Assembly: GCA_015234065.1 (NCBI GenBank)
Contig: JADFWS010000007.1
Span: 1-34,251, forward strand
Length of the DNA stretch: 34,251 nucleotides
Source of the DNA: Candidatus Omnitrophota bacterium
GTDB taxonomy: Bacteria; Omnitrophota; Gorgyraeia; Zapsychrales; Fredricksoniimonadaceae
Reading direction: 5' to 3'
Under the pieces are notes generated by a model. That model did not search any database, had not been told where the DNA came from, and was given only the letters and a program-made list of their open reading frames with translations. Both the position numbers and the translations under genes were made by a program. Position 1 is the stretch's first letter. Each line of letters starts with the position of its first letter. This document shows positions 1 through 32,172 of this stretch, one piece after another.

Positions 1-3000
1 ACATCTGAACAATTGCCTCAACCGGAGGCTGATCGGATATTTTATGCGGCAGTGGGATCTGATGCGGATGCCAAAGAAGTGCCGAATTTTGTGGTGAAGA
101 ACCTTCGCCAATATGTGACGTTTGACGGATTTAAAGGCCGCGGGTACAAGGAATTCGGCTGGGCTTTTGAATTCATGCGTGCGTTGACGGACAGCGACCC
201 CGGCCTTGACCGTATCCTTATCCGCAAAGGGTTGTTGCGGTCTCTGGCGCAGGGGGTCACCTATATTGAAGTGACGGTGAATGATATTCGCGGATTAAAG
301 TTTGCCGTGCTTGGTGCTGAAGATGCGGCCAGGGAATCAAAGGGCCGTTTGCAGGTCGCGGTCCTCTACGGCCAGCGCCGCGATCAGATGTATCGCGTGT
401 GGGCCAGGCCTGTTGAGGAACAGGCGGCTGAAATGGCCCGGTATGAACATATGACTCTTGCGGCACTCATTGAGGATATCCGTAAGAAAGTGGTTGTCGA
501 AGATGCGCATTGCTTCGGGATCATGCCCGAGAAAAGCCATGCCGAGTTTAATACGGCTTTAGAGGAAATGCGCTGGTTATGTGATGCGTCCCGGTGGAAG
601 TCCGGCCTGTTGCCTGCTGAGCAGTTACGCCGCCTCTTGATCGAGGCTTTGGCCGCGCGCACGCTTGCGTTGGATGAGATCAAACATTTTCAGCGGGTCT
701 GTGAAGAGCTCAAGCATGAAAACCTGGTCGCAGCCCGGCGCATCGTGGGGATCTCGTTCGTGGGCAATGACAAATATACTTTTCCCTGGCTGTATGCGCC
801 GGCGATCCGTTATGCGCAGAAGAAAATAAAAATGAAGACCACGATACACGCCGGGAAATCCTGGCGGCCGGGGATGTATTTACGGGTCTTACACCATGTG
901 GATCAGGACCTTGCGCTTGGGCCGAATCGTGTTGAGCATTTGTGCGTCCTTGAGCCGGACCCGTCTGATCCGAACGTGCTGATCGAAGAGGGGCTGACGG
1001 ATAGCCAGCGTCAGGAAGCCGCGGATCTTCGCCGGAAAATACTCCAAACGCTTTTTAACAGGAAGATCCCGGTCTCGGTGGCGTTTTCAAGTCAGCGGCT
1101 GGGAGACCCCGCCAGCATGGACCGCACGCTTCGGCTGATCAACTTCTTTGCGCGGGCATTTATATTAAAAAGCGAGCTGGAGAAACATTTTCCGGGTGCG
1201 TTCAACCTGTTGCAGGCAAAAGGCTATCTGGAAGTTTTTCCTGACGAGAAGACGGCGATATCCGGCGGGGCCAAGGGGCTTCTTTCGGGCGATATGAGCG
1301 CGCTGGAGAATGATCGCGTGCTGGCCTTGGCATTGAAGGAACGTTTTTCAGACCTGGTTGTGTTCCTTAAACAGGCGCCGGGTATTGACGTCTCGTTTAA
1401 CATGCCGAATCCCGCGGTCGAAGGGGTTGCGCTGGCCGATGATATCGCGGAAGCTGTGCTGCGCCTGCCGCATATGCCGTTTGCCCGGTGGCGCAATATG
1501 GTTGACGACGGAGATACGCGGTGTTTTCACCGGACAGTTGAGGTTTTGATCGAGCGCCTGCTTGAAGAGATGGAGAAGGTCTATGAGCGCACTTTCGGGC
1601 TTTGGCATGATATTTGTGTTTTTGGCAGTGCGCGTACCGGCCGGGGGCATCCGCTGAAAGTGTTTGAAATGGGCGAGGCCCTGGGTGTATGGATCATGCG
1701 CCTGGGCGAAACGATCGTGACAGGCGGCGGCCCGGCGGGTATGGAAGGCCCGCTCGTGGGGTATATCAAGGAGCGTAGTCGTCACGGAGCGCAGGTCACA
1801 ATGGCAACCATGACCCGTGTGGTGCGCATTGCGTTGAATTTTTTTGAGCCGCTGAATGTGTATGCGGAAAAGGTTTGGGAGTTCAATCATTTTATGTTCC
1901 GCAAGGAAGCTTTGTTCCGTTTTGCCAAGGGCGTGATCGCGCTTCCCGGCGGGTTTGGCACCATGGAGGAGATCCTCGAAGCGGTTGTCCGTGGGCATCG
2001 GGTGCAATGCCTTGGCGATTTTTGGAAGCCGGTCATGCAGGCGTTCGACCGGTACTGGCAGAAGGCGGGTTTACCGGACCGTGTTATGAGCAAGCTTGAT
2101 TTTACAGCCTGGGCTGAAGATACATGGAATAAAGAACCGCCGCAGGCGTTGTTGAATATTATTAAAAATCCTTTGAAGCCCGCGCAGGTGACAGAAACTG
2201 AAAGACAGGAACGCCGCCGCGTGATCCGCGAAGGTATCCGCATGTTCGAGGCTTTGCATGAGCCTATTGTTTTTGGCGGTGATGCCGGAACAGATGCCCA
2301 GTGGCAGGCGATGGCAGAGACCATGCGTGAAACAGTGGCGCGCGGGATCCCGGTTCGGGTCATCAGCCGCGGCAGGGCTTTTGAGCTGGCGTGGCAGATC
2401 GTTGTGGAGGAGGCCAACAGGCCGGACCTGTTCCAGGCGGTCTTGTGGTCAGGCACGCATAAAGCGCCATGGGAGAATAATGAAACATATGCGCTGGCTT
2501 GTTTTGAAGAGCAGGTCTTGTTCACCACGGATTATACGATGGAGCGTTTTCTGGGCAATTATCGTTCGCTGCGCATGGTCCTGACGCCCGGCGGTGAGGC
2601 GCTGACGCTTCTGATGGCGGATATGATGGTCGTGGTCCAGACCAAGAAAGTGGCCCAGCGTCCTATTGTGCTGATCGATGATGAAGGCGGCGCGGCTGAT
2701 GAGCTGTTCGCAGCGCTGGAATCCGTGTTCGAGCCCGCCGGAACGATTACCAAAGGCGATCTTAATATTGTCCGCCGCCTTAAGACCGGTTCTGGGATCA
2801 TTCAATATTTATTTCCGGCTTCATCTCATAAATCTCCGGGCATGATGATTCCTTTTCGGGCATGGTTTCATTGGGTCAAGAGCGATATTCTTAAAGAGAA
2901 AATTGCCTGTGCCTGGTGCCCGTCTGTGGAAAACTTTTTGATCCGTCAGTGCCGCATGCCACAATGGCTTTTTATGCTGTTACATTTCCCGGGCGATCGT

Positions 3001-6000
3001 GAAGCGGCGCGCGACGTGTTCAACGTTGTGCGTAACGCTTCCACCAATGCCGCGGCACATACGGCTCACGGCGTATTTAATAGGGACACACTATTTTGCG
3101 CAAACAATCCGAACAAACCGAACAATAATAGTGTGTCCCTATTATTCCTGGGTGCCGCGGCGGTTGTTACGACGGTATGCGCAGCTGCCGGCCTGATGAT
3201 GTATCCGCACGCACTGGATCATGTTCCTTCGTTATATGTGATGTTCGCCTGTTACGGCTTGGGCACTGTTATTGGATGGATCACGGCGATGATCGATAAA
3301 AAGCCGCTTGGCTGGTGGCTGATGGTGAAGGGCCTTGTGCTGGATACGCTTGTTATCGGCTGGACGAATACTCTCTGGTATGACTATGTGTTCCCGTTAT
3401 ATGGACGGGTTTTGCCGGGCAGCGGTTTTGGCCATCAGGTATTTATTAATTTTCTGCATTCCTTCGGCTCGGCATTCCCGTTCTTTATTGTGTACCTTTT
3501 TTGTTCGTTGTTATGGACGGCGCGGTTCAAAGGCAACTGGTTTGCATATTTGAAAACAGCGCATACGATGTATTTTTCAACAGCCACCGTTGGGTTGATC
3601 TATTGGGCGTTTGTTATTTTGGGCGCTATGCGTCTGAACCTGCCCATGACCAATATTAATGCGGTGGCGACCGTGCCGTACGCGATCGGGCTTATCTGGT
3701 GGGGGAACGGCGGGTACGCGTCGCCGTTGGCGCAATGGCTGCCGCGGTTGCCCTGGTCAAACGCCCAGTGGGCCGGAATTTATTTAGGGGTCGTGGCCGG
3801 GTTCTGGGGCGGCATCGTGGGGCTGGGGCTTTTCAGCGCCACACCGTGCACATTCCTTATGGCGTGCGCTCTTGCAGGTTATGGGCTGAAAAGTTTCGGG
3901 AGCACGCAACACAATACGAGGTCTTCGTGTTCTGGGCCCGTCAACCCGGAGCTGCCGATCCCTGTCGAGGCATTCCAAAAGAGCGCGCTGGTGTTGCGCA
4001 CGATTGCGGGCAGGGCGGATGTTTTTAACGATTTTGCCGAGCGCCTGATCTGGGTTGTTGCTGATCCTGCAGAGCGTCCGTTTGAAGCACGCTGGAAGGC
4101 GCGCCACAGCCTGGTAGGCGACGCGATGACATATCTTCTGTTATGGATCGACATGGTTTTGGCCACACCGGCGAGCCTGGATGCCTGCATTCAACGGTCA
4201 ACGGTTGGCGGCGGGCAGGCGTACTCAGGCCGTATTTCCGGGCAAATCGAGGCGTTTGCGACATCATTGAGTGCGCTTGAATTCGCGGCACGAAAAAGAA
4301 CTCCGGCAGAGAAAGCGCATTTGGCGCAATATAAAGGCACGCAAGAAAACCCGGTGCCGGCTGTAGACCTGGGGTCTTTTATTGATGAAACGGTTATTGC
4401 CGTAGATGCCGAACGTAAGGAGAAATTTGACAGGGCCTTAAAGGATATTCGACAAGAGTGGACGAATGTCGAAACACTTTTTAATGACGAGATCCTGCCG
4501 TATATCCGCGCGCGCGAACAAGCATTGACCGATCATTCTAAGGATACGCTATGTCAGACGAATAACCCGAACAATCCGAATAGAAATAGTGTGTCCCGAT
4601 TATTGTTGTTGTGCCTCACCGGGATGGCGGCCCTGCATTTCGGCGTACCGCACGCTTCGGCCGCGACGGAATTTCTGGCTGTGAGCGGTGCCGCCGGCCG
4701 CGCGTCGCCGCTATTGGGGATACCTGTGTCGTTGGCATTGCCCGCTTTGTTTACAACCCTTCTTGGAATGTGCTCATCGTTATTCAAGTCCCGCCGGCCC
4801 GGAACAACCTATGAAGAGGGTGGTGTGACCTGGGAAGTATGTGACCCCAAAGATATGGTCTTTGAGCAAAGAAATAAAAGGATAAATATCACGTCGAAAG
4901 TGACCTATAAAGGCGATCCGCGCTGGGTGAAGCAGGCGCTTGTGCTGGAGTCTCTTGATGAGGCAAAAACCATTGTCCCGATGGCAGCCCTCTATCAAAA
5001 GATCGGCCGGCTGGGTTTTCAGGGCTTGAACACCGCCGAGGCTTTCCTGGATGTGCGTGGCGCTAAAACTATTGTGATGACGACATTGCCGCCTGGCAAG
5101 CCGCTGAAGGACCCGTTTTTTCGAGGCATCACAACGGCCGGGAAGGTCGATATTATTCTTCAGGTGGCGCGAGCGCTCAAAGTTTTTCATGATCATGTCG
5201 GGGTCCATGCGGATGTGCACCCGTTGAATGTCTGGGTTACGGATCAAGGCCGGGTTATTCTTTTTGATTATGATGTGGCGTTCAGCACGTCGGATGAGTT
5301 TATGGCACGTAAACTGATGGCGGCATGTTTTGACCCTGATTTTTCCTCGCGCAAGCGTCGCATGATCTGGCGCGATCAGTTGGAGCCTGAGTGGATCAAG
5401 CGCCCGGCATGGTCAACGATCACGGTCACGAAAGATATGGTTTTTGGCCCGGAAGAAGATGTGTATGCCCTGAGCACCATGTTGTTGTATCTCTTGTTCG
5501 GCCAGGATGGGCTGCAAGAATATAATTCCCGGGGTTTTAATGATTTTGAAAAGTTCTTTGTGCGTGATGGCCCGGTCAACGTGGAGCCCGAAATGATGGA
5601 TTTTCTCCGTCGGGCTTTAGTGGACGATCCCCAAAAAGGTTTTCAGGCCGCGGAGGCATTCATTGCGGCGCTGGAAAGAGTCAGAGCCGCGTTGCGGGGC
5701 CCCGCGAAGCGTGTCGAATTGACTGCGGATGTTTTCAGAAAAACGAACGTATCGATGGCCGGTATCTTTTTGGAAGCGGAGATCCCGGCGCGCCAACAAT
5801 TTCTGCAGAGCCTCGGTGCGGATATTCTTTTGGCATTTTCGATCTGGCATGTGATCCAGGCGAATGCGCCGCCGCTTGATGTGGAATCATATGCCTGTAC
5901 ATCGATCAGCACCATGGTTGTCTCTTTCAAAGGCAAGATCAGTTTTGACCGGCATCCAGCATTTCAGTATCTTTCCCCACGTGCGGCACGCTACATAGAA

Positions 6001-9000
6001 TTTTTTGAGACAAGATGTAGTTCTAATGAGGATATAGAGCGGGCTTTCCGTGATTTTCTCAATGATATCTTTCGTGTTCGTCGCCGCCTGGAAGCGCAGT
6101 TCAGTTTTATAAGGGAATTCAACGATCTTCGCCCTGAAGGCCAACGGATCCGGCATTTTAACGGGCTGGTTTTTGAGCAGAAGATTTTGGAGCTTTTGGG
6201 GTTTGAAGGTGAAGGCCGTGACTTGGTTCATGTGAGCGCGCGCAAGGCGCTGAAGGATGCCGTCTCGGCGGCACAATTGAATACGATGGATCAGGATAAC
6301 CGGATCCGCGGCATTTCCGGCGAGGTGACCGGGCTTGATGAGCTGGCGATCAAGTTTGGGCAGGTTATGCAGTCGACCCGGGCCGGCGTTCTCGACGGGA
6401 CGAACAGGTTTGTTCCGTTAAAAGCGGTTAATAAAGTTAAAGAATTCGACCAGGTTGCGGTTACGACCGAGAACGGGAAGCGGCGGCTCATCGTCCAGGA
6501 ATGTAAATTTTCCGGCGGATATTTTAAGCTTCTTCAGCAGGTCATTGGCGGCCTTGTTTCGTTAAAGACATACCGGGAAAAGTTATCGCATCTTGAGCTT
6601 GTGAACAGCCATCCGGATTACAGGGGGCGTGTGGCCGAGTATCGGCATATTCTGGAGCATGAGATCAATGGCGGTGTTCTTAGCCTCGGGATTGCGGCGT
6701 ATTTGCACAGGCATTCCGAGTTGGCATCGCGCCTGCATGTGACGGACAAAGGGTTTTCGTTTCGAGTTCCGTTATCAGAATTCCACTCATTTTTCTTTTC
6801 ACCGCGGCAACGTCCGTTTATTCTGGCCGACCCTGCGGTACGCGGCGCGCATATTGATTGGGCCAGGACAGAAGTAAAAGTTAAAAGCATCATTGATGAG
6901 AGCCTGAAGGCCGGTTGCGGTAACGAGGAGATGGTGATCACGGTCAGTAATGCTGACCCTGAAGGGCTGAAATTATTACAGGCCATTGCTGAAGAGTATG
7001 CGCTTGCGCACGCGATCTCATTTGAGGGCTGGCTGCAGGACCGTGTGCGGCTGGCCGCGATTGACACAGTGATCATTGATTTTGACGGGTCGGTCATCGG
7101 GATCGATGAGGCGCTTCTTGATTCGCTCATGGCCAATAGGATCGAAGCGTTGTTGTCGTCGGGCGTGCATGTGATCATTGTGACCGGGCGTTCCCGCGAT
7201 TCTTTCTTATCGCATCTTGGGAAAGGTGTTGCGCTGCGTTTCAGCCAACAAAGAGGCCGCTGTTATTTGGTTACGAATACCGGCGCGGCCTGGTATGAAT
7301 TAATGAATGGAGAGGCCCGGCTGCGCAAGCAGGCGCCCGGGACAGAGGATCTGTCCGGGGATATTGGCCGTGTGTTGACAGAAATATTCCGGCGTTCAGT
7401 GCATGAAGTGTTTGATCATGTCGGCCTGGCTGAAAATATGCCTGGCCAAAAGATTTCTTTGAACGCGCCGTACGATCTTTTTCTTTCCCTCAAGGAAGAA
7501 AGCCAGCGGCGCTGGTGCCATATGATCGCGGACCGTGTTAATCGGCACATTGAACCGCTAAAAAAAGCAGGACTTTTGCCTTCGGAATCCCGGGCGTTAA
7601 TATCGTCGGAGACCGTATATATTGCATTGCATGAGAAAGCCGGATTTTTACCTGCGGTTCTGAGGGAACTTCAAGGCCAGCGTGTGGTGTTCTTGGGCGA
7701 TTCCATGGGAACCGCGTATTATCCCGGCAATGACCGCAGTGTGTTTACGCTTTCCGCCGCTAGTATTCAACAGCTTGGCCTCGAGCGTTTTGACAGAATT
7801 TATGTTGGCCATGAGCGGATGCTGGAGATCCCCGAGGGCATTATTCGTGCCAGTGCGGCGAAAGGTGAAAAAATATGGGCTCCGGCGAGGCGCATGATGG
7901 CTGCGATTGTGCAGGCAAAGAAGGGTGCGTTCTTGTCTGAGGCGTCATTGAAGGTCCCGCCGGGCATGCCGGCTTGTCCGTTATGGGTGGGTGGCTTGGT
8001 GGCAGGGCATCTCGGGATGCAGATATTTTCCGAAGAAAAATGGTTCTTCACCGGCATCATCGCCGTTGTTTGGTCCGCGTGCCATATCGGTGCATATATT
8101 TATGACAGAAAGGACGAGCTTTGGCAAAGTGTTGCGCGCGCGGGCCGAGGGCTGTGTCAGAATGCGGTTAGATTGTTTGCGCTCGTGCTTTTCTTTTTGG
8201 AAAGAATGAGCACACTTTTTGCCATTGAGGCTCCGTGGCTCATTCGTTCTTCGCTCGGGCTGCTCGGCATTTTTATCGGAATATCTGTGGTCAGTTTTTA
8301 TTTTGCACCGGGGCTTTTGCTCGCTTCGGCAAAGCTCGGCGTTGCCATTGCTGTGTTTATGGTATATGCCGGCAGCGCGGTATTCCTCGATGGCAGGGCT
8401 CGCCGTTTGGGCGTGGCTCCGGCAATGCTGGCGTTGACGGCGAGTGGCATCATTTATGGATTTCTGGATTTGCCGTGGCACGCGGCCGTGTGGTTTAAGT
8501 ACGGTATTCTTCCGGAAATGCTGATGTACGCGGTTGCGGTCTTTGCGGCGAATATGCTCCGCCTGATGGCGGTTGCCGGAAAAGGCGCGCACGGGCTTGC
8601 GTGGCCCCGTGAAATGAAAAGAGCGTCCTGGTGGCGCGCGATGTTGTTTGGCCGCCTGCTTCGCTGGGCGATGGCAGGAGCCGCGTCGGGAAGCTTTATG
8701 TACGCGTATTTGACGTTCTTAAATGACCGCTGGTCTTTATCGTTCAGCAACATGATCGTGGGGGCGCTGGTCAAGACCGCGTTTGATCAGGGCATCATGA
8801 CATTCTTTGTGATCTTTCCGATGCTTGTTGCGGTTGTTGAGCTGATCGGACAGCGGGAAAGCCTTCGATATGTTTTTATTGGGAAGACAGGGCTGGCGTC
8901 GAGAGCCAATATATTCGGGGTCTTCCGGCAGAATATATATGCGCGTTACAAGGGGCTTCTGGGGTTTGATGTTTTTTACTGGTCTGTTATCCTGTTCGTA

Positions 9001-10845
9001 TCCTGGTCAGTCAATGCATGCATTGCCGGCGCGTCCAATGCGTTTGTGGCCATGGTCATTGAATCTATTTTTACCATGCCCGCGATCTTTTATTGGTATG
9101 TTCATTTGAATAAGAGCTACGTTTTTCAGAGCCGTGTTCGCGTTAATGAACATAATTGGCCAGGGCTTGCGAAAAATATGGTCCGCCACATTCAACGCAG
9201 GATCATGACGGATTGCGTTATGATCGCGGATTCTGAGGCAACGGCCATGCAGCTGGCGGTTTTTTTGAATAAGCATGCCGGTATCCGCGCGGCGTTCGCT
9301 GTTGATGAAAACAGCGTCAGCCTGGCGCGCGAACAGCATCATGCGAATATCCTTATCCTTGTCCGGCACAACCGGGCATGGCCGCAGTGTGTCAAGCAAT
9401 GGCGGAGCACGCCGTCAGGCAATGCCGACGCGAGGCGCGGGAAGTTGCAGGCTTTTCTGCCGGATAGTAAAACCGATCAGCCGCGTGCGTATGACATGCC
9501 TGTGCCGCCGGAGGTCCAGCAGAATATTGAAACACGCGATGGCGTCAAGCGGCTTTGCTGGTCTGCGCCGGTGCAGGGGTTGCGGCTCCTGGATCAGAAA
9601 AACCAGCCTATGGCGTATGAAGCCCGGAGTGTTCAGCGGGCATTGTATCTGCTGGGGGCTGTTTATGGCCGGGCGTCACCCAGGCCAAAATGCTGGACTG
9701 TGCGCGTTACCACGTCGCTGGAGCAGACCAGGGGGTGTGTGGCCGCGTGCCGCATCAAGGAACGTGTCGTGTCGCTTTCCCCGTATTTCTTTACGTTGCC
9801 GTTGTTGCTCCAGGCTAGGATCCTGTATCACGAACTGATCAGCCATATGGCCAAGGATCTGCGCCTCGAATCTTCCGCCAAGGCCGATACAGATACATTC
9901 TGGCAAACAAAAATGCTGGACCATCCCGGTATCCGTGGAGTTGTGCTGGATGACCTTCTTACAAAAACCGCGAATATTGATTGGAGCCCGGACCATTTAA
10001 CCGGGGCATTCCAGAAAGTCCAATTTGGGAGGTATCTGACGGCGCAATATGCGGTCAAATACCTGGAGTATGATGAGTGTTCCCTGTCGGCGCTGGATAA
10101 CGTGGAACATCAGGCCAATGATGTGGATACGCTGCTGCAGCTGCATTCCCAGGGGCAGATCCCGTCGCTGGCTCTGCCGCTGGCGGCCTGCCGGGAGGGA
10201 TTCACGATGTATTCCATTCAGCCAAATTATGGAAATTATAAAATTGTTGATCCGCGCCGGCCGTTTGACCCGGCGCGTGTGACGGAACTGGCCCGGCGTA
10301 TGGCCGAAGCAGTACAGCAACTGCATTCCCGTCACATGCTCCATCGGGATATCAAGCCGGATAATTTTATTGTGGATGTTGATCCGGCAACGGGAAAAAT
10401 CCTGAGCGTGGTTTTGTGTGACCTGGGGTTTGCTGTTCCTGCTGGAACTATTACGGAAACGACGGGCGCGCAGAGATATATGTGGCCGCAAGACTGGAAA
10501 GAAAGAAATGCCCGCGTCCGTCAGGATGAGCGCGCGGATCTTTATGCGCTTGGCTTGACGATCTGTGAAATGAGTACCGGGGCCGCGTTCAATATCCGTC
10601 AGTATCGCACGCGGATGCGGGCGTTAGGCCCGTCGGCGGCACCGTTACTGGACGTTATAGAACATTGCATCAATGTCAAGCGGCAGAAAGGCCCGGCGTA
10701 TACACGCGTATCCCAGGCTGTTGCCGCCCTCAAGCGGGCCGCCCGAGCTCAAAAAAATGCGGATAAAAAGGCGCGGGCGCAATTTGATTTTGACGAGCTT
10801 CATGCCAGGGCGGCCAAATTCAAGCCGGGCTGGCTATTACGCTGA
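1..10845 (+). CDS. Giant multidomain protein, 5'-truncated by the window edge (ADA-like / LOG-like x2 / TM / kinase-like / PD-(D/E)XK-like / HAD-like / TM / HExxH / Ser-Thr kinase)
   Basis: Frame 1 is open from base 1 (aca tct gaa caa ttg...) to the stop at 10843-10845; the listed TTG at 13 is probably not the true start. Motifs: PGGFGTMEE (LOG), HADVHPLN...DYD (kinase-like), DFDGS...VTGRS...GDS (HAD), HELISH (HExxH), HRDIKPDN...DLG (kinase). Confidence 0.85.
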   Translation, partial: TSEQLPQPEADRIFYAAVGSDADAKEVPNFVVKNLRQYVTFDGFKGRGYKEFGWAFEFMRALTDSDPGLDRILIRKGLLRSLAQGVTYIEVTVNDIRGLKFAVLGAEDAARESKGRLQVAVLYGQRRDQMYRVWARPVEEQAAEMARYEHMTLAALIEDIRKKVVVEDAHCFGIMPEKSHAEFNTALEEMRWLCDASRWKSGLLPAEQLRRLLIEALAARTLALDEIKHFQRVCEELKHENLVAARRIVGISFVGNDKYTFPWLYAPAIRYAQKKIKMKTTIHAGKSWRPGMYLRVLHHVDQDLALGPNRVEHLCVLEPDPSDPNVLIEEGLTDSQRQEAADLRRKILQTLFNRKIPVSVAFSSQRLGDPASMDRTLRLINFFARAFILKSELEKHFPGAFNLLQAKGYLEVFPDEKTAISGGAKGLLSGDMSALENDRVLALALKERFSDLVVFLKQAPGIDVSFNMPNPAVEGVALADDIAEAVLRLPHMPFARWRNMVDDGDTRCFHRTVEVLIERLLEEMEKVYERTFGLWHDICVFGSARTGRGHPLKVFEMGEALGVWIMRLGETIVTGGGPAGMEGPLVGYIKERSRHGAQVTMATMTRVVRIALNFFEPLNVYAEKVWEFNHFMFRKEALFRFAKGVIALPGGFGTMEEILEAVVRGHRVQCLGDFWKPVMQAFDRYWQKAGLPDRVMSKLDFTAWAEDTWNKEPPQALLNIIKNPLKPAQVTETERQERRRVIREGIRMFEALHEPIVFGGDAGTDAQWQAMAETMRETVARGIPVRVISRGRAFELAWQIVVEEANRPDLFQAVLWSGTHKAPWENNETYALACFEEQVLFTTDYTMERFLGNYRSLRMVLTPGGEALTLLMADMMVVVQTKKVAQRPIVLIDDEGGAADELFAALESVFEPAGTITKGDLNIVRRLKTGSGIIQYLFPASSHKSPGMMIPFRAWFHWVKSDILKEKIACAWCPSVENFLIRQCRMPQWLFMLLHFPGDREAARDVFNVVRNASTNAAAHTAHGVFNRDTLFCANNPNKPNNNSVSLLFLGAAAVVTTVCAAAGLMMYPHALDHVPSLYVMFACYGLGTVIGWITAMIDKKPLGWWLMVKGLVLDTLVIGWTNTLWYDYVFPLYGRVLPGSGFGHQVFINFLHSFGSAFPFFIVYLFCSLLWTARFKGNWFAYLKTAHTMYFSTATVGLIYWAFVILGAMRLNLPMTNINAVATVPYAIGLIWWGNGGYASPLAQWLPRLPWSNAQWAGIYLGVVAGFWGGIVGLGLFSATPCTFLMACALAGYGLKSFGSTQHNTRSSCSGPVNPELPIPVEAFQKSALVLRTIAGRADVFNDFAERLIWVVADPAERPFEARWKARHSLVGDAMTYLLLWIDMVLATPASLDACIQRSTVGGGQAYSGRISGQIEAFATSLSALEFAARKRTPAEKAHLAQYKGTQENPVPAVDLGSFIDETVIAVDAERKEKFDRALKDIRQEWTNVETLFNDEILPYIRAREQALTDHSKDTLCQTNNPNNPNRNSVSRLLLLCLTGMAALHFGVPHASAATEFLAVSGAAGRASPLLGIPVSLALPALFTTLLGMCSSLFKSRRPGTTYEEGGVTWEVCDPKDMVFEQRNKRINITSKVTYKGDPRWVKQALVLESLDEAKTIVPMAALYQKIGRLGFQGLNTAEAFLDVRGAKTIVMTTLPPGKPLKDPFFRGITTAGKVDIILQVARALKVFHDHVGVHADVHPLNVWVTDQGRVILFDYDVAFSTSDEFMARKLMAACFDPDFSSRKRRMIWRDQLEPEWIKRPAWSTITVTKDMVFGPEEDVYALSTMLLYLLFGQDGLQEYNSRGFNDFEKFFVRDGPVNVEPEMMDFLRRALVDDPQKGFQAAEAFIAALERVRAALRGPAKRVELTADVFRKTNVSMAGIFLEAEIPARQQFLQSLGADILLAFSIWHVIQANAPPLDVESYACTSISTMVVSFKGKISFDRHPAFQYLSPRAARYIEFFETRCSSNEDIERAFRDFLNDIFRVRRRLEAQFSFIREFNDLRPEGQRIRHFNGLVFEQKILELLGFEGEGRDLVHVSARKALKDAVSAAQLNTMDQDNRIRGISGEVTGLDELAIKFGQVMQSTRAGVLDGTNRFVPLKAVNKVKEFDQVAVTTENGKRRLIVQECKFSGGYFKLLQQVIGGLVSLKTYREKLSHLELVNSHPDYRGRVAEYRHILEHEINGGVLSLGIAAYLHRHSELASRLHVTDKGFSFRVPLSEFHSFFFSPRQRPFILADPAVRGAHIDWARTEVKVKSIIDESLKAGCGNEEMVITVSNADPEGLKLLQAIAEEYALAHAISFEGWLQDRVRLAAIDTVIIDFDGSVIGIDEALLDSLMANRIEALLSSGVHVIIVTGRSRDSFLSHLGKGVALRFSQQRGRCYLVTNTGAAWYELMNGEARLRKQAPGTEDLSGDIGRVLTEIFRRSVHEVFDHVGLAENMPGQKISLNAPYDLFLSLKEESQRRWCHMIADRVNRHIEPLKKAGLLPSESRALISSETVYIALHEKAGFLPAVLRELQGQRVVFLGDSMGTAYYPGNDRSVFTLSAASIQQLGLERFDRIYVGHERMLEIPEGIIRASAAKGEKIWAPARRMMAAIVQAKKGAFLSEASLKVPPGMPACPLWVGGLVAGHLGMQIFSEEKWFFTGIIAVVWSACHIGAYIYDRKDELWQSVARAGRGLCQNAVRLFALVLFFLERMSTLFAIEAPWLIRSSLGLLGIFIGISVVSFYFAPGLLLASAKLGVAIAVFMVYAGSAVFLDGRARRLGVAPAMLALTASGIIYGFLDLPWHAAVWFKYGILPEMLMYAVAVFAANMLRLMAVAGKGAHGLAWPREMKRASWWRAMLFGRLLRWAMAGAASGSFMYAYLTFLNDRWSLSFSNMIVGALVKTAFDQGIMTFFVIFPMLVAVVELIGQRESLRYVFIGKTGLASRANIFGVFRQNIYARYKGLLGFDVFYWSVILFVSWSVNACIAGASNAFVAMVIESIFTMPAIFYWYVHLNKSYVFQSRVRVNEHNWPGLAKNMVRHIQRRIMTDCVMIADSEATAMQLAVFLNKHAGIRAAFAVDENSVSLAREQHHANILILVRHNRAWPQCVKQWRSTPSGNADARRGKLQAFLPDSKTDQPRAYDMPVPPEVQQNIETRDGVKRLCWSAPVQGLRLLDQKNQPMAYEARSVQRALYLLGAVYGRASPRPKCWTVRVTTSLEQTRGCVAACRIKERVVSLSPYFFTLPLLLQARILYHELISHMAKDLRLESSAKADTDTFWQTKMLDHPGIRGVVLDDLLTKTANIDWSPDHLTGAFQKVQFGRYLTAQYAVKYLEYDECSLSALDNVEHQANDVDTLLQLHSQGQIPSLALPLAACREGFTMYSIQPNYGNYKIVDPRRPFDPARVTELARRMAEAVQQLHSRHMLHRDIKPDNFIVDVDPATGKILSVVLCDLGFAVPAGTITETTGAQRYMWPQDWKERNARVRQDERADLYALGLTICEMSTGAAFNIRQYRTRMRALGPSAAPLLDVIEHCINVKRQKGPAYTRVSQAVAALKRAARAQKNADKKARAQFDFDELHARAAKFKPGWLLR
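3078..3144 (+). repeat. Palindromic element, family A copy 1 (inside the giant ORF)
   Basis: Perfect 18-bp arms taatagggacacactatt (3078-3095) and aatagtgtgtccctatta (3127-3144) around a 31-nt loop containing caatccgaacaaaccgaac. Confidence 0.9.
4537..4602 (+). repeat. Palindromic element, family A copy 2 (inside the giant ORF; left arm degenerate)
   Basis: ctaaggatacgctatgtcagacgaataacccgaacaatccgaatagaaatagtgtgtcccgatta aligns with copy 1 in the same orientation and reading frame (NRDTLFCANNPNKPNNNSVSLL vs SKDTLCQTNNPNNPNRNSVSRL). Confidence 0.75.
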
Positions 10846-22700: not shown

Positions 22701-22715
22701 TCAAAAGATGTGAAT

Positions 22716-22766
22716 AAAATAATGCAGGGGACCCTGAGCGAAGCGAAGGATCCCCTGCATTATTTT
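22716..22766. terminator. Strong hairpin ending in a T-run; also a family B repeat
   Basis: Perfect 16-bp arms aaaataatgcagggga (22716-22731) and tcccctgcattatttt (22751-22766), starting 16 nt after the stop at 22700; loop contains ccctgagcgaagcgaagga. Confidence 0.75.
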
Positions 22767-22819
22767 GTCAGCATTCTTTTTACCTTTTACTTTTTACTTA
22801 TAAAAACTTCGCTTTTTCC

Positions 22820-25414: not shown

Positions 25415-28400
25415 ATGCGGCAGGTACTTTCTTGTGTGATGGCGGTGTTGATCGGGTTTGGGCCCGAAGCGTCGTATGCCCAGGCGGTGATCATGAATTT
25501 GCCGCAACCAGGGACCATGGTTCATGTGAGTGAGGCCTTTGCGCCGATTGCACTCAAGGGCATGGTGATTTATCCCGAAGACCCGCTCAAGTTTGATTTT
25601 CTCGTCGATGCCGGTGACGAAAAATTGCAACCCGCCGCGTTCAAACAGGAATCCCAGCGTTTAGTGAATTATTTTCTCGCGTCCATGACCATTCCCCGGC
25701 AGGACCTGTGGGTTAACCTGTCGCCTGTGGAGAAAGACCGCATTGTGCCGGATGCCCTCATCAAGACTGAAATGGGCCGCGATATGCTGGCTCAGGATTA
25801 CCTCTTGAAACAGCTCACGGCATCCATGATCTACCCTGAGGATAACCTGGGGAAAACGTTTTGGAAGAAAGTCTACGATGAGGCGTATCGCCGCTTTGGC
25901 ACGACTGACATCCCGGTCGACACATTTAATAAAGTCTGGATCGTTCCGCAAAAAGCATCGGTGTTCGAGAAGGGCAACGCGGTATATGTTGTGAGTACGC
26001 ATCTTAAGGTGATGCTCGAAAGCGATTATCAAGCGAATGTCCGTCATGCTGAGGCCCCGGGGGCCGAAGCATCGCCGGTGCGTATGGGGGGCAAACAAAA
26101 GAATGGAGGGGATCCTTCGGCTTCGCCTCAGGATGACGTCGTTGCTCCCGACGACCTAGCCAAACAGATCCTCCGTGACATCATCATTCCTGAGCTTGAA
26201 AAAGAAGTGAATTCCGGCAAGAATTTCGCGCCGCTCAGGCAGATCATTGATTCCCTTGTCCTGTCCCAGTGGTATCAGGACACGCTCAAGAACAGCATCC
26301 TCAATAAAACCTACGCCGGAAAGAACAAGATCGCGGGCATTGATACAAGCGCCAGCGCAAATCGTCAGAAGATCTACGACGCCTATATGGAAGCGTATAA
26401 AAAGGGCGTGTTTAATTATATTAAAGAAGAGTCAGCGACGATGCGTCATGCTGAGGCCCCGGGGGCCGAAGCATCGCCTGTGCGTATGGGGGGCAAACAA
26501 AAGAATGCCGGGGATCCTTCGGCTTCGCCTCAGGATGACAGCGCTCTTGCAGGGGATCCTTCGGCTTCGCCTCAGGATGACAGCGCTCTTGCAGGGGATC
26601 CTTCGGCTTTGCCTCAGGCTGACGCCGTTGCCCACAAGTATTTTTCCGGCGGCGTGAATTTTGAAAAAACCATTCCGCGTGACAGTGCGTCTGAACAGGA
26701 ATTCAAACAGAGCGCGATGACGACTGCGGTTTCAACAGTGCAGATCAGTTTGCGTGATGCAAAAAGTGCGCCGACTTTGAAATTTGTTCCTCAGAGTGAG
26801 TATATTCAGAGGCAGGCACGCTGGGCACGCATACTGGAAAAGCGTATTTTTTTGCTTCAAACGGATGAAGAAACGCCGGGAAAGGTGCTTCTTGCGCATG
26901 ATCAGTTGTTTTCAGGCCTGGATCCTCGAGGTGTTCTTGAGGCTGAGCGTGTGCTTCGAGAAGTCATCACGGATCCTGCGTATGCATGGAATGATTTAAA
27001 AGTGCAGTATACTGGCGGCGATATTGTTTCGAACAAATCGCTGTCGCCGTGGGCAAAGGTCCAGGCATTGGATTTATTGATATTAAGGCTGTGGAGATAT
27101 GCCAAGAGTCTGGAAGCGGATGTTCCAGGTGTTCAACAGGCCGAGAATAAGGCAGAGGCCCGCAAACAGGTTTTATTGGAAGAACTGGGTGTCACGACAT
27201 CCGCGGAGCTTTTAGAAAAGCTTCAAAGTCTGGAAGTGGCTCGCATGGTGAGCCCGGATGCGGGTTCTTTGGAGGAAATGAACAAGATAGCGTTGGCCAT
27301 TGTTTACGACCAGAAAGCTGCTCCGGTAATGCGTTTTCAGACCGCGCAGATGCTTAGTGAAATAAGCGACAGGCAAGAGGTGGCAGGAATGGCGTTCGGG
27401 TTTTTGGGCATGGATCATCATATGACAGACGCGCAACGGCTGGAATGTGCCCGTTGGTTTGATGCCAAGGGTGATCTAGATCAGGCCGGCGTTATTCGTC
27501 GTGCTGTGGGCGTCGAATCCGCCATGACGGCGCAGGCGCTGTTTAATCCGAAGGCATGGGCAATGTTTGTGGAGCAGGCTTTGCCTGAAGCAGATGCCGG
27601 TATGCCGAATGTGTTGCGTCAGCAGCGTGATGAATTTCTCAAGGTTAAGACTGTGCAGGATTTTCTGAACCTCATGGTTAGGCTTGCCGATATTCTGGAG
27701 CGCTCGTCGGATAAAGGCATTCCGGAAGAACAATATCTTGAGAGAAAGACCAGGCATGTTCATATTGACGTATTTTGGGTGGCGTCGGTTTTGGCCAGTG
27801 TTTTGAGGGATATTCAGTTCCGTACAGGAACGGATGAGGCGACGGCCAAAGAGCTGAGAAAAGGGTTTGAGGAGCTTAGGCGGAATTTGCTCACGGATAA
27901 GTCTGCCGGAGAGATCGTCCAGGAATTTCTGAAGCACAGTGTCAGCTTTCTTCAGGCATTGGCGGATAGCACGAACGCGGCCATGCTGACCGAAAAAGAT
28001 AAAGAAGCGTTCAAAGCACTGTTGAATTCCGGGTTCACTAAAGACGCTACGCTGGCGGCGGAGATCGGAAAACTGGCGAATCGGGCAGGCCTTTCCGACG
28101 GAGACCTTCAGTGGCGGACGGCTATGTTCTTGCAAGTTTTAAATGGGAGCGCGAATCAAGAGTACGGCCGTTTGTCTAAAATGGCGGCACTGGATGCGAT
28201 TAAACTTGAAGGCTTCACCAAATACGCGGTCTTTAAGGCTATTCAACAAACGCGCCGTCAGAAGTGGGTCGAGATCGTGCAGGCGGTATTGAAAGCTTGG
28301 TCAGACCCTGATCGCGATATCCGTCAGAAGGCTTTTGACCGGATGGAACGTATGTGGAGTTATGTCCAGGAGTTGGGAGGCTTGGAAACGCAGGCTCTTT

Positions 28401-28669
28401 ACGCGGCGCTGGAGCAGAATGTCCTGACCAATGAACAGGCCGCCCTGGTCAGAGACGGGAAGGTCCCGGTCGAAGCGGCGATGGCTGGAAAACAAGTCGA
28501 CGGTGGTATTGACGCGCGGAATATCGGGCTGGACCGTCAGGGCCGGGGGAATGCGGAGATCGTCAGCTCTGAGGCGCTTGAAAAAATGATCGCGGGCTGG
28601 ACAGGCATTCAAGGCGTGATCGTCAGTGTGACGCCGATGAGCAGCGTGTTGCCGGTGTTCGGCATTTAA
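25415..28669 (+). CDS. Large exported protein of unknown function with embedded palindromic-repeat peptides
   Basis: SD aaaagga; signal-like N-terminus; YPEDPLKFDFLVDAGDEKLQ...PEDNLGKTFWKKVYDEAYRRFGTTDIPVDTFNKVWIVP; in-frame repeat inserts; stop codon lies in a family A element. Confidence 0.8.
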   Translation: MRQVLSCVMAVLIGFGPEASYAQAVIMNLPQPGTMVHVSEAFAPIALKGMVIYPEDPLKFDFLVDAGDEKLQPAAFKQESQRLVNYFLASMTIPRQDLWVNLSPVEKDRIVPDALIKTEMGRDMLAQDYLLKQLTASMIYPEDNLGKTFWKKVYDEAYRRFGTTDIPVDTFNKVWIVPQKASVFEKGNAVYVVSTHLKVMLESDYQANVRHAEAPGAEASPVRMGGKQKNGGDPSASPQDDVVAPDDLAKQILRDIIIPELEKEVNSGKNFAPLRQIIDSLVLSQWYQDTLKNSILNKTYAGKNKIAGIDTSASANRQKIYDAYMEAYKKGVFNYIKEESATMRHAEAPGAEASPVRMGGKQKNAGDPSASPQDDSALAGDPSASPQDDSALAGDPSALPQADAVAHKYFSGGVNFEKTIPRDSASEQEFKQSAMTTAVSTVQISLRDAKSAPTLKFVPQSEYIQRQARWARILEKRIFLLQTDEETPGKVLLAHDQLFSGLDPRGVLEAERVLREVITDPAYAWNDLKVQYTGGDIVSNKSLSPWAKVQALDLLILRLWRYAKSLEADVPGVQQAENKAEARKQVLLEELGVTTSAELLEKLQSLEVARMVSPDAGSLEEMNKIALAIVYDQKAAPVMRFQTAQMLSEISDRQEVAGMAFGFLGMDHHMTDAQRLECARWFDAKGDLDQAGVIRRAVGVESAMTAQALFNPKAWAMFVEQALPEADAGMPNVLRQQRDEFLKVKTVQDFLNLMVRLADILERSSDKGIPEEQYLERKTRHVHIDVFWVASVLASVLRDIQFRTGTDEATAKELRKGFEELRRNLLTDKSAGEIVQEFLKHSVSFLQALADSTNAAMLTEKDKEAFKALLNSGFTKDATLAAEIGKLANRAGLSDGDLQWRTAMFLQVLNGSANQEYGRLSKMAALDAIKLEGFTKYAVFKAIQQTRRQKWVEIVQAVLKAWSDPDRDIRQKAFDRMERMWSYVQELGGLETQALYAALEQNVLTNEQAALVRDGKVPVEAAMAGKQVDGGIDARNIGLDRQGRGNAEIVSSEALEKMIAGWTGIQGVIVSVTPMSSVLPVFGI
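26042..26138 (+). repeat. Family B palindromic repeat block, in-frame copy 1
   Basis: cgtcatgctgaggccccgggggccgaagcatcgccggtgcgtatggggggcaaacaaaagaatg...ggggatccttcggcttcgcctcaggatgacg; near-identical to the block beginning at 26444. Confidence 0.9.
26444..26632 (+). repeat. Family B palindromic repeat block, in-frame copy 2, extended by a 42-bp tandem repeat
   Basis: Same block plus ggggatccttcggcttcgcctcaggatgacagcgctcttgca repeated with 42-bp period (starts at 26510, 26552 and 26594; last unit diverged), encoding GDPSASPQDDSALA. Confidence 0.9.
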
Positions 28670-32050: not shown

Positions 32051-32172
32051 TCGTCATCCTGAGGCCGTAGGCCGAAGGATCCCCTGCATTATCTTATCAG
32101 CATGCTGTTGATGCGCAAATCAAGAAATCCGGGAGATCCTTCGCCCGCCTTCGGCGGGACTCAGGATGACGT
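32051..32172. repeat. Family B palindromic repeat cluster between thiH and thiF
   Basis: tcgtcatcctgaggccgtaggccgaaggatcccctgcattat...gagatccttcgcccgccttcggcgggactcaggatgacg: two facing palindromes. Confidence 0.85.

What the first reader, a model, noticed from the sequence alone, without database searches (positions are those of the whole stretch)
26042..26632. Palindromic repeats inserted in-frame in a protein-coding gene, expanded into a 42-bp tandem array
Seen: two near-identical blocks in the same frame encode RHAEAPGAEASPVRMGGKQKN(G/A)GDPSASPQDD; the second continues as GDPSASPQDDSALA-GDPSASPQDDSALA-GDPSALPQADAVA. The same DNA motif (gatccttcggcttcgcctcaggatgac and its complement) occurs in non-coding DNA at 22732 and 32051-32172. 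Inference: this intergenic-type repeat has invaded a coding sequence, as described for Rickettsia palindromic elements, and is expanding by tandem duplication, probably at a tolerant linker.
Basis: partly seen in the sequence, partly recalled or inferred. Interest (0 to 1): 0.72.

Follow-up and report, generated by a model that had tools for sequence, protein, structure and literature searches.

The report
Mobile palindromes repeatedly invade protein linkers
A short mobile hairpin repeat that normally sits between genes has landed, in frame, inside a protein gene of an Omnitrophota bacterium and multiplied there, and the same few linkers of this protein family have been hit again and again by unrelated repeats in this and other species, so one family works as a sink for such elements.

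Summary
In ORF 25415-28669 (1084 aa), two 97-nt inverted dimers of a repetitive extragenic palindrome (REP; CGTC-tagged hairpin) are read in frame as RHAEAPGAEASPVRMGGKQKN(G/A)GDPSASPQDD. The second dimer is followed by two more units at a 42-nt period. A covariance model finds 70 units in the genome. Nearly all lie between genes. Every copy deep inside a gene lies in this one paralogous family (about 28 members; no Pfam, NCBIfam or PDB match). Paralogues show the empty site.

The tree rejects a single origin for the CGTC carriers (p-AU 1.6e-9). Other Omnitrophota show the same with further REP families. Over 101 genes, 14 of 16 strong inverted repeats fall in four short linkers (22% of the DNA, p 6e-8). 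In two other genomes the invading GTAG-REPs also flank a Y1 (RAYT-like) transposase gene. No such enzyme was found for the CGTC type here.

Coding palindromes are known (Rickettsia RPEs; intragenic REPs). Repeated invasion of homologous linkers of one protein family across a phylum by many REP families appears undescribed. Most likely cause: mobile REPs tolerated at flexible linkers.

The parts
25415..28669 (+). Host ORF, 1084 aa, probably secreted (N-terminal hydrophobic stretch ending SYAQA); conserved Omnitrophota N-terminal domain, variable C-terminal part
   Evidence: no Pfam/NCBIfam/PDB match
26042..26138 (+). REP inverted dimer A in linker A (CGTC tags outward): units 26042-26079 (+) and 26099-26138 (-), with spacer
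   Evidence: empty in paralogues
26444..26540 (+). REP inverted dimer B in linker B (before HKYFSGG), near-identical copy of A
26506..26631 (+). 42-nt tandem array of the right-hand REP unit (three units: 26501-26540, 26543-26582, 26585-26624)
22731..22764 (+). Intergenic REP unit (partial)
   Evidence: 30.5 bits
32052..32093 (+). Intergenic REP unit, left half of a dimer
   Evidence: 60.5 bits
32123..32171 (-). Intergenic REP unit, right half of the dimer
   Evidence: 53.2 bits

Best explanation
The insert is a CGTC-tagged REP inverted dimer (REPIN-like) that inserted in frame into a flexible linker of a paralogous secreted protein. SHOWN: it is a member of a multicopy, mainly intergenic hairpin family; paralogues have the empty site; the same linker has been hit several times by unrelated REP families in this and other Omnitrophota; two GTAG-type REP families found in such linkers in other genomes also lie next to a Y1 transposase gene there. 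INFERRED: the elements arrive by single-strand transposition (by a RAYT for GTAG types; enzyme unknown for the CGTC type), insertions that keep frame and avoid stops survive because these linkers are loops that tolerate length change, and the large paralogue number offers most of the tolerant coding target. Block B arose by copying block A within the gene. The 42-nt array grew by the same head-to-tail unit duplication seen in intergenic REPs, with only a multiple-of-three period surviving in coding sequence.
For: Hairpin with compensatory changes (99.4% of cells paired, 5 pairs with double changes). 70 units in the genome; deep-internal coding copies only in this family. Empty linkers in paralogues. 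Carriers scattered on the tree, one CGTC clade rejected p-AU 1.6e-9. Different families at the same linker. Other genomes: insert table, strong inverted repeats in linkers p 5.6e-8, same dimers intergenic and in linkers with the element 93-100% identical and flanks 48-76% at linker A. Y1 transposase genes beside the same GTAG-REPs. Intergenic REP arrays have periods 43, 41, 41, 38 against 42 in the gene.
Against: No transposase was found associated with the CGTC family in this incomplete genome (85.7%): its one Y1 gene is flanked by its own GGGGACACACTATTTTTG terminal repeats. Some shared insertions may have spread by gene duplication or gene conversion: L010/L011 as one clade is not rejected, and L219/L220 elements are identical with somewhat raised near-flank identity. 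Linker density is at least comparable with intergenic density (rough estimate), which is more than pure tolerance with a frame filter would predict.
Confidence: 0.72

Rival explanations
1. The linkers are selected acceptor sites: REP-encoded peptides or the hairpin DNA give the family something useful (linker diversification, recombination between paralogues, mRNA-level pausing), so insertions are retained rather than merely tolerated.
For: At least six acquisition events at one linker in one genome; linkers 0, A, B and C hit in many genomes and by many REP families; the GGGGACA palindrome was found almost only inside the family here; elements nearly identical between diverged paralogues.
Against: No peptide sequence is shared between REP families; most paralogues do without an insert; survivorship at loops explains position; large paralogue number raises target size.
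Confidence: 0.17
2. One ancient insertion, then inheritance and gene conversion among paralogues; no recurrent insertion.
For: L010, L011 and block B share element details; L219 and L220 carry identical elements.
Against: CGTC carriers do not form a clade (p-AU 1.6e-9) and GTAG carriers do not (1.5e-6); three unrelated palindrome families in one linker cannot share an ancestor; carrier REPs differ in loop type.
Confidence: 0.07
3. Assembly or binning artefact, or misannotated ORF.
For: MAG with 176 contigs; arrays are prone to collapse; only three units are assembled.
Against: A 3.2-kb uninterrupted ORF runs through all inserts; flanking homology continues in frame on both sides; the same phenomenon is found in independent MAGs.
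Confidence: 0.04

Closest known systems
CGTC-tagged REP superfamily (Di Nocera 2013, PMC3733652)
   Same: CGTC tag, A-T/T-A first stem pairs, inverted dimers, mostly intergenic, some intragenic in frame, no dedicated transposase
   Different: Stem interrupted by a tandem G-A mismatch, loop length variable, tail C(C/T)CC(T/G)GCATTATT rather than CCA; Omnitrophota; coding copies concentrated at homologous linkers of one paralogous family
Rickettsia palindromic elements (RPE), incl. RPE-4/RPE-6
   Same: Palindromes translated in frame inside conserved protein genes; RPE-4 and RPE-6 are CGTC repeats according to PMC3733652
   Different: RPEs hit many unrelated genes in one genus; here one paralogous family is hit repeatedly by several repeat families across a phylum
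GTAG-REP/RAYT systems (REPtrons, REPINs)
   Same: In other Omnitrophota the linker palindromes carry GTAG tags and matching REPs lie next to a Y1 transposase gene
   Different: The window's own element is CGTC-tagged and no associated RAYT was found
ERIC, Correia and other bacterial MITEs fused to ORFs (Delihas 2007, PMC2229807)
   Same: Small non-autonomous elements forming in-frame fusions
   Different: Those reported fusions are scattered over genes, and the elements are different kinds

Membership tests
CGTC-tagged REP superfamily | Unpaired CGTC (or TGTC) tag at one end | tested here: met
   Consensus CGTCATCCTGAG; G2-T3-C4 invariant in 20 units
CGTC-tagged REP superfamily | Stem of 8-9 bp, first two pairs A/T | tested here: inconclusive
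   8 pairs, first two A-U and U-A in all 20 units, but the helix is split by an unpaired G-A/G-A step
CGTC-tagged REP superfamily | Loop of 4-5 nt (a few families differ) | tested here: not met
   Loop and inner stem vary in length among units
CGTC-tagged REP superfamily | 3-bp tail, mostly CCA | tested here: not met
   Tail C(C/T)CC(T/G)GCATTATT; the paper says most, not all, tails fit CCA. So it is likened to the superfamily by tag and stem start, and not filed in CGTC-1 to CGTC-4
CGTC-tagged REP superfamily | Frequent inverted dimers, multicopy, mostly intergenic | tested here: met
   70 units, inverted dimers frequent, nearly all outside genes
CGTC-tagged REP superfamily | No associated transposase | tested here: met
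   Only Y1 gene in the genome has other terminal repeats; genome 85.7% complete
REPIN/RAYT system | RAYT gene flanked by the same REP in the genome | tested here: not met
   Not met for the window's CGTC element. For GTAG-REPs of other genomes: L270 is flanked on both sides by inverted copies, L266 has copies on both sides, L267 has one upstream and one inside the ORF
Rickettsia palindromic element | Occurs in Rickettsia with RPE-specific sequence | tested here: not met
   Host is Omnitrophota by its protein family; works like an RPE but is not filed as one
Rickettsia palindromic element | In-frame insertion in protein genes with insert-free homologues | tested here: met

The most novel reading that the evidence does not exclude
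The linkers of this Omnitrophota protein family are preferred or selected acceptor sites for REP elements, so that mobile palindromes from many families act as a standing source of new linkers and of recombination points in an expanding family of secreted proteins, rather than being merely tolerated there.
Probability: 0.18. Interest if true: 0.82.

Novelty: new variant of a known kind. Interest (0 to 1): 0.62.

Why it matters
Protein-coding palindromes have mostly been described as scattered curiosities. Here one homologous linker serves as a replicated natural experiment: the same site, in dozens of paralogues and many species, hit by several REP families, with empty sites alongside. That makes it possible to ask directly how REPs move, which insertions survive in proteins, and whether mobile DNA supplies new linker sequence. 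It also exposes two GTAG-REP families of other genomes, with adjacent Y1 transposase genes, as candidate autonomous sources.

Tried and rejected
Profile search of solved structures found nothing; Pfam and NCBIfam have no model for the family. A DNA pattern with fixed loop length found only 7 copies and was replaced by a covariance model. A literature search for the motif as letters gave only irrelevant hits; no paper in the library joins Omnitrophota with REPs. A pattern search showed the GGGGACA palindrome at <=2 mismatches in the family, plus one doubtful weak hit on a contig position outside it (C99). Rejected: a conserved peptide domain (absent from most paralogues), a single ancestral insertion, chance. 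Many ORF-overlapping REPs near 5' ends were discounted as probably upstream of the real start codon.

Full report
OBSERVATION. ORF 25415-28669 translates without interruption through both blocks and the tandem. Block 1 (26032-26137) and block 2 (26434-26539) are 93% identical; the 42-nt unit repeats from 26506 to 26631. The core motif has 4 matches at up to 3 mismatches and none in shuffled sequence.

WHAT THE ELEMENT IS. Twenty units, most from this genome's loci, align to CGTCATCCTGAG-(variable)-CGAAGGATC(C/T)CC(T/C/G)GCATTATT. The hairpin has the form ATCCT-GA-GGC...GCC-GA-AGGAT; 99.4% of cells pair, five of eight pairs change on both sides, and sliding the partner destroys this. A covariance model finds 70 units at E <= 0.05 in the 1.75-Mb genome; only 150 of 1421 first-look candidates were scored, so weak copies may be missing. 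Many units form inverted dimers with CGTC tags outward and a spacer ending ...CAAACAAAATAATGC(A/C)GGGGATCC. The window inserts are such dimers. CGTC-tagged REPs are a described superfamily without a known transposase, and Rickettsia RPE-4 and RPE-6 belong to it (PMC3733652). Tail and loop differ from the published summary, so I liken the element to the superfamily by tag and stem start only.

WHERE COPIES LIE. Of the 70 units, those deep inside an ORF are those in the window gene (six by the model: 26042, 26099, 26444, 26501, 26543 and 26585) and those in C146, C129 and C106. All four genes are members of one family, at the same linker. Other ORF overlaps lie near the 5' end of the open frame, where the real start is probably downstream (inference from position; not tested one by one).

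EMPTY SITES. The family has about 28 members in this genome. Most paralogues have a short linker between LKVMLESDYxA and the next conserved segment. Four carry CGTC-REP sequence there: window L010, L011, L018 as dimers, L013 as a shortened single form. Two others (L020, L028) carry GGGGACATGTTGCCC...GGGCAACGTGTCCCC, and L016 carries GTAGGGGC...GTCGCCCCTAC, with a degenerate form in L017. As single-stranded DNA these fold better than shuffles, z -3.5 (window), -6.7 (L020), -5.9 (L028), -2.9 (L016), except L017 at -0.8. The GGGGACA palindrome was found in three paralogues (C115, C164 twice, and a weaker match in C121 at an earlier linker) and at one doubtful place elsewhere. GTAGGGGCGACCC occurs in C91 (two in a family fragment, two outside it), C136, C150 and C159. 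In C136 the family gene is split into two ORFs at the palindrome, which shows what a poorly placed insertion may do.

INDEPENDENCE. On a tree of 22 paralogues built without the linkers, carriers are scattered. Holding the four CGTC carriers together is rejected (p-AU 1.6e-9), as is holding the two GTAG carriers together (1.5e-6); L010+L011 (0.29) and the GGGGACA pair (0.19) are not rejected. The least reading is about six acquisitions at linker A in one genome. Gene conversion could have moved some of them.

BLOCK 2 AND THE ARRAY. Blocks A and B share the unusual left hairpin (ATGCT/AGCAT) and spacer; L011 shares part of it. Block B is therefore most likely a copy of A within the gene; the match includes the eight bases G(T/C)CGTTGC after the element, which speaks for a recombination-type copy rather than clean transposition. 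Head-to-tail REP arrays also occur between genes with periods 43, 41, 41 and 38. The coding array has period 42. Expansion is thus a habit of the element, and the coding copy shows a frame-preserving version; the numbers are small.

OTHER GENOMES. A scan with insert-free paralogues returned 79 loci, nearly all labelled Candidatus Omnitrophota. Over 101 genes, 20 of 26 insertions of 8 aa or more lie at linker A. Strong inverted repeats (score >= 11) number 16, of which 14 lie in four linkers that make up 22% of the DNA (binomial p 5.6e-8; 2.6 expected in codon-shuffled genes). The linker windows were drawn after seeing the insertions, so the p-value is somewhat flattering. The sequences include CGTC-type (L194, L145/L151, L166) and GTAG-type (L157, L153, L140, L180, L169) palindromes. 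The L157 dimer has 19 matches in its genome: three family members at linker A and five at a further linker C, one in frame in a UvrD-like helicase, and others between genes. At linker A the elements are 93-100% identical while flanks are 48-76%. The L151 dimer has at least 40 copies in each of three genomes, mostly intergenic among the loci examined, with four in linker A of family members.

HOW THEY MAY MOVE. Y1 transposase genes were sought in five other genomes. In G057 (the genome of L140), L270 has GTAGGGGCGGACCTTGTGTCCGCCC in inverted copies on both sides and L266 has copies on both sides. In G055 (the genome of L157), L267 has one copy just upstream and one in frame inside the transposase ORF (RAGLEPAPT). 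This fits RAYT-driven mobility for GTAG types. In the window's genome the single Y1 gene has other terminal repeats, so the enzyme for the CGTC type is unknown. Intergenic CGTC dimers have on average 1.0 open frames of six, the same as shuffles, while the coding dimer has four; so coding copies look filtered for readability.

WHAT IS KNOWN AND WHAT IS NEW. In-frame palindromes are known from Rickettsia and from intragenic GTAG and CGTC REPs, with the suggestion that they sit in loops or linkers (PMC3733652; PMC2229807; PMC10969869). That 2013 paper noted one case of REPs at about the same site of recB in two Xanthomonas species. I found no report of many REP families repeatedly occupying homologous linkers of one paralogous family across a phylum; only an open-access library was searched. 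The family itself has no Pfam, NCBIfam or PDB match.

MECHANISM AND DOUBT. Neutral tolerance at loops plus large target size explains most of the pattern. A rough density estimate (my own, with an assumed 5-10% intergenic fraction) puts linkers at or above intergenic density in this genome, which is more than a frame-filtered neutral process should give; this keeps the selected or targeted reading alive.

Noticed in passing
window 13-10845: A 3610-aa ORF with several seemingly unrelated segments (kinase-like, hydrolase-like, membrane stretches); a giant multidomain protein.
   Followed up: no
L267:1459-1962 (-): A Y1 transposase ORF in another Omnitrophota genome carries a GTAG-REP in frame inside itself (NNRAGLEPAPT) and another just upstream.
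   Followed up: partly
L227:81-1703 (-): UvrD-like helicase with an in-frame GTAG-REP dimer (VGAGLRPALNDVRVGLEPTPT) between the P-loop region and AITFTNKAA; repair helicases with REPs were reported in PMC3733652.
   Followed up: partly
L115 (G000:C136) 253-326: GTAGGGGCGACC dimer at a family gene that is split into two ORFs there; looks like a disruptive insertion.
   Followed up: partly
L009 (G000:C157): The genome's only Y1 transposase gene is flanked by inverted GGGACACACTATTTTTGTT repeats; their start resembles the GGGGACA palindromes found in linkers.
   Followed up: partly
L134 (G000:C91) 1-420: Family gene fragment with GTAGGGGCGACCC hairpins in frame after the signal peptide (VGATRWVA) and at the next linker.
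   Followed up: partly
L028 and L020 linkers: Besides the palindrome, both carry a similar following stretch (LPxxQPxN..KA/RATQ), perhaps a further repeat.
   Followed up: no
window 22703-22779: Intergenic REP lies inside a longer 33-nt-arm inverted repeat.
   Followed up: no
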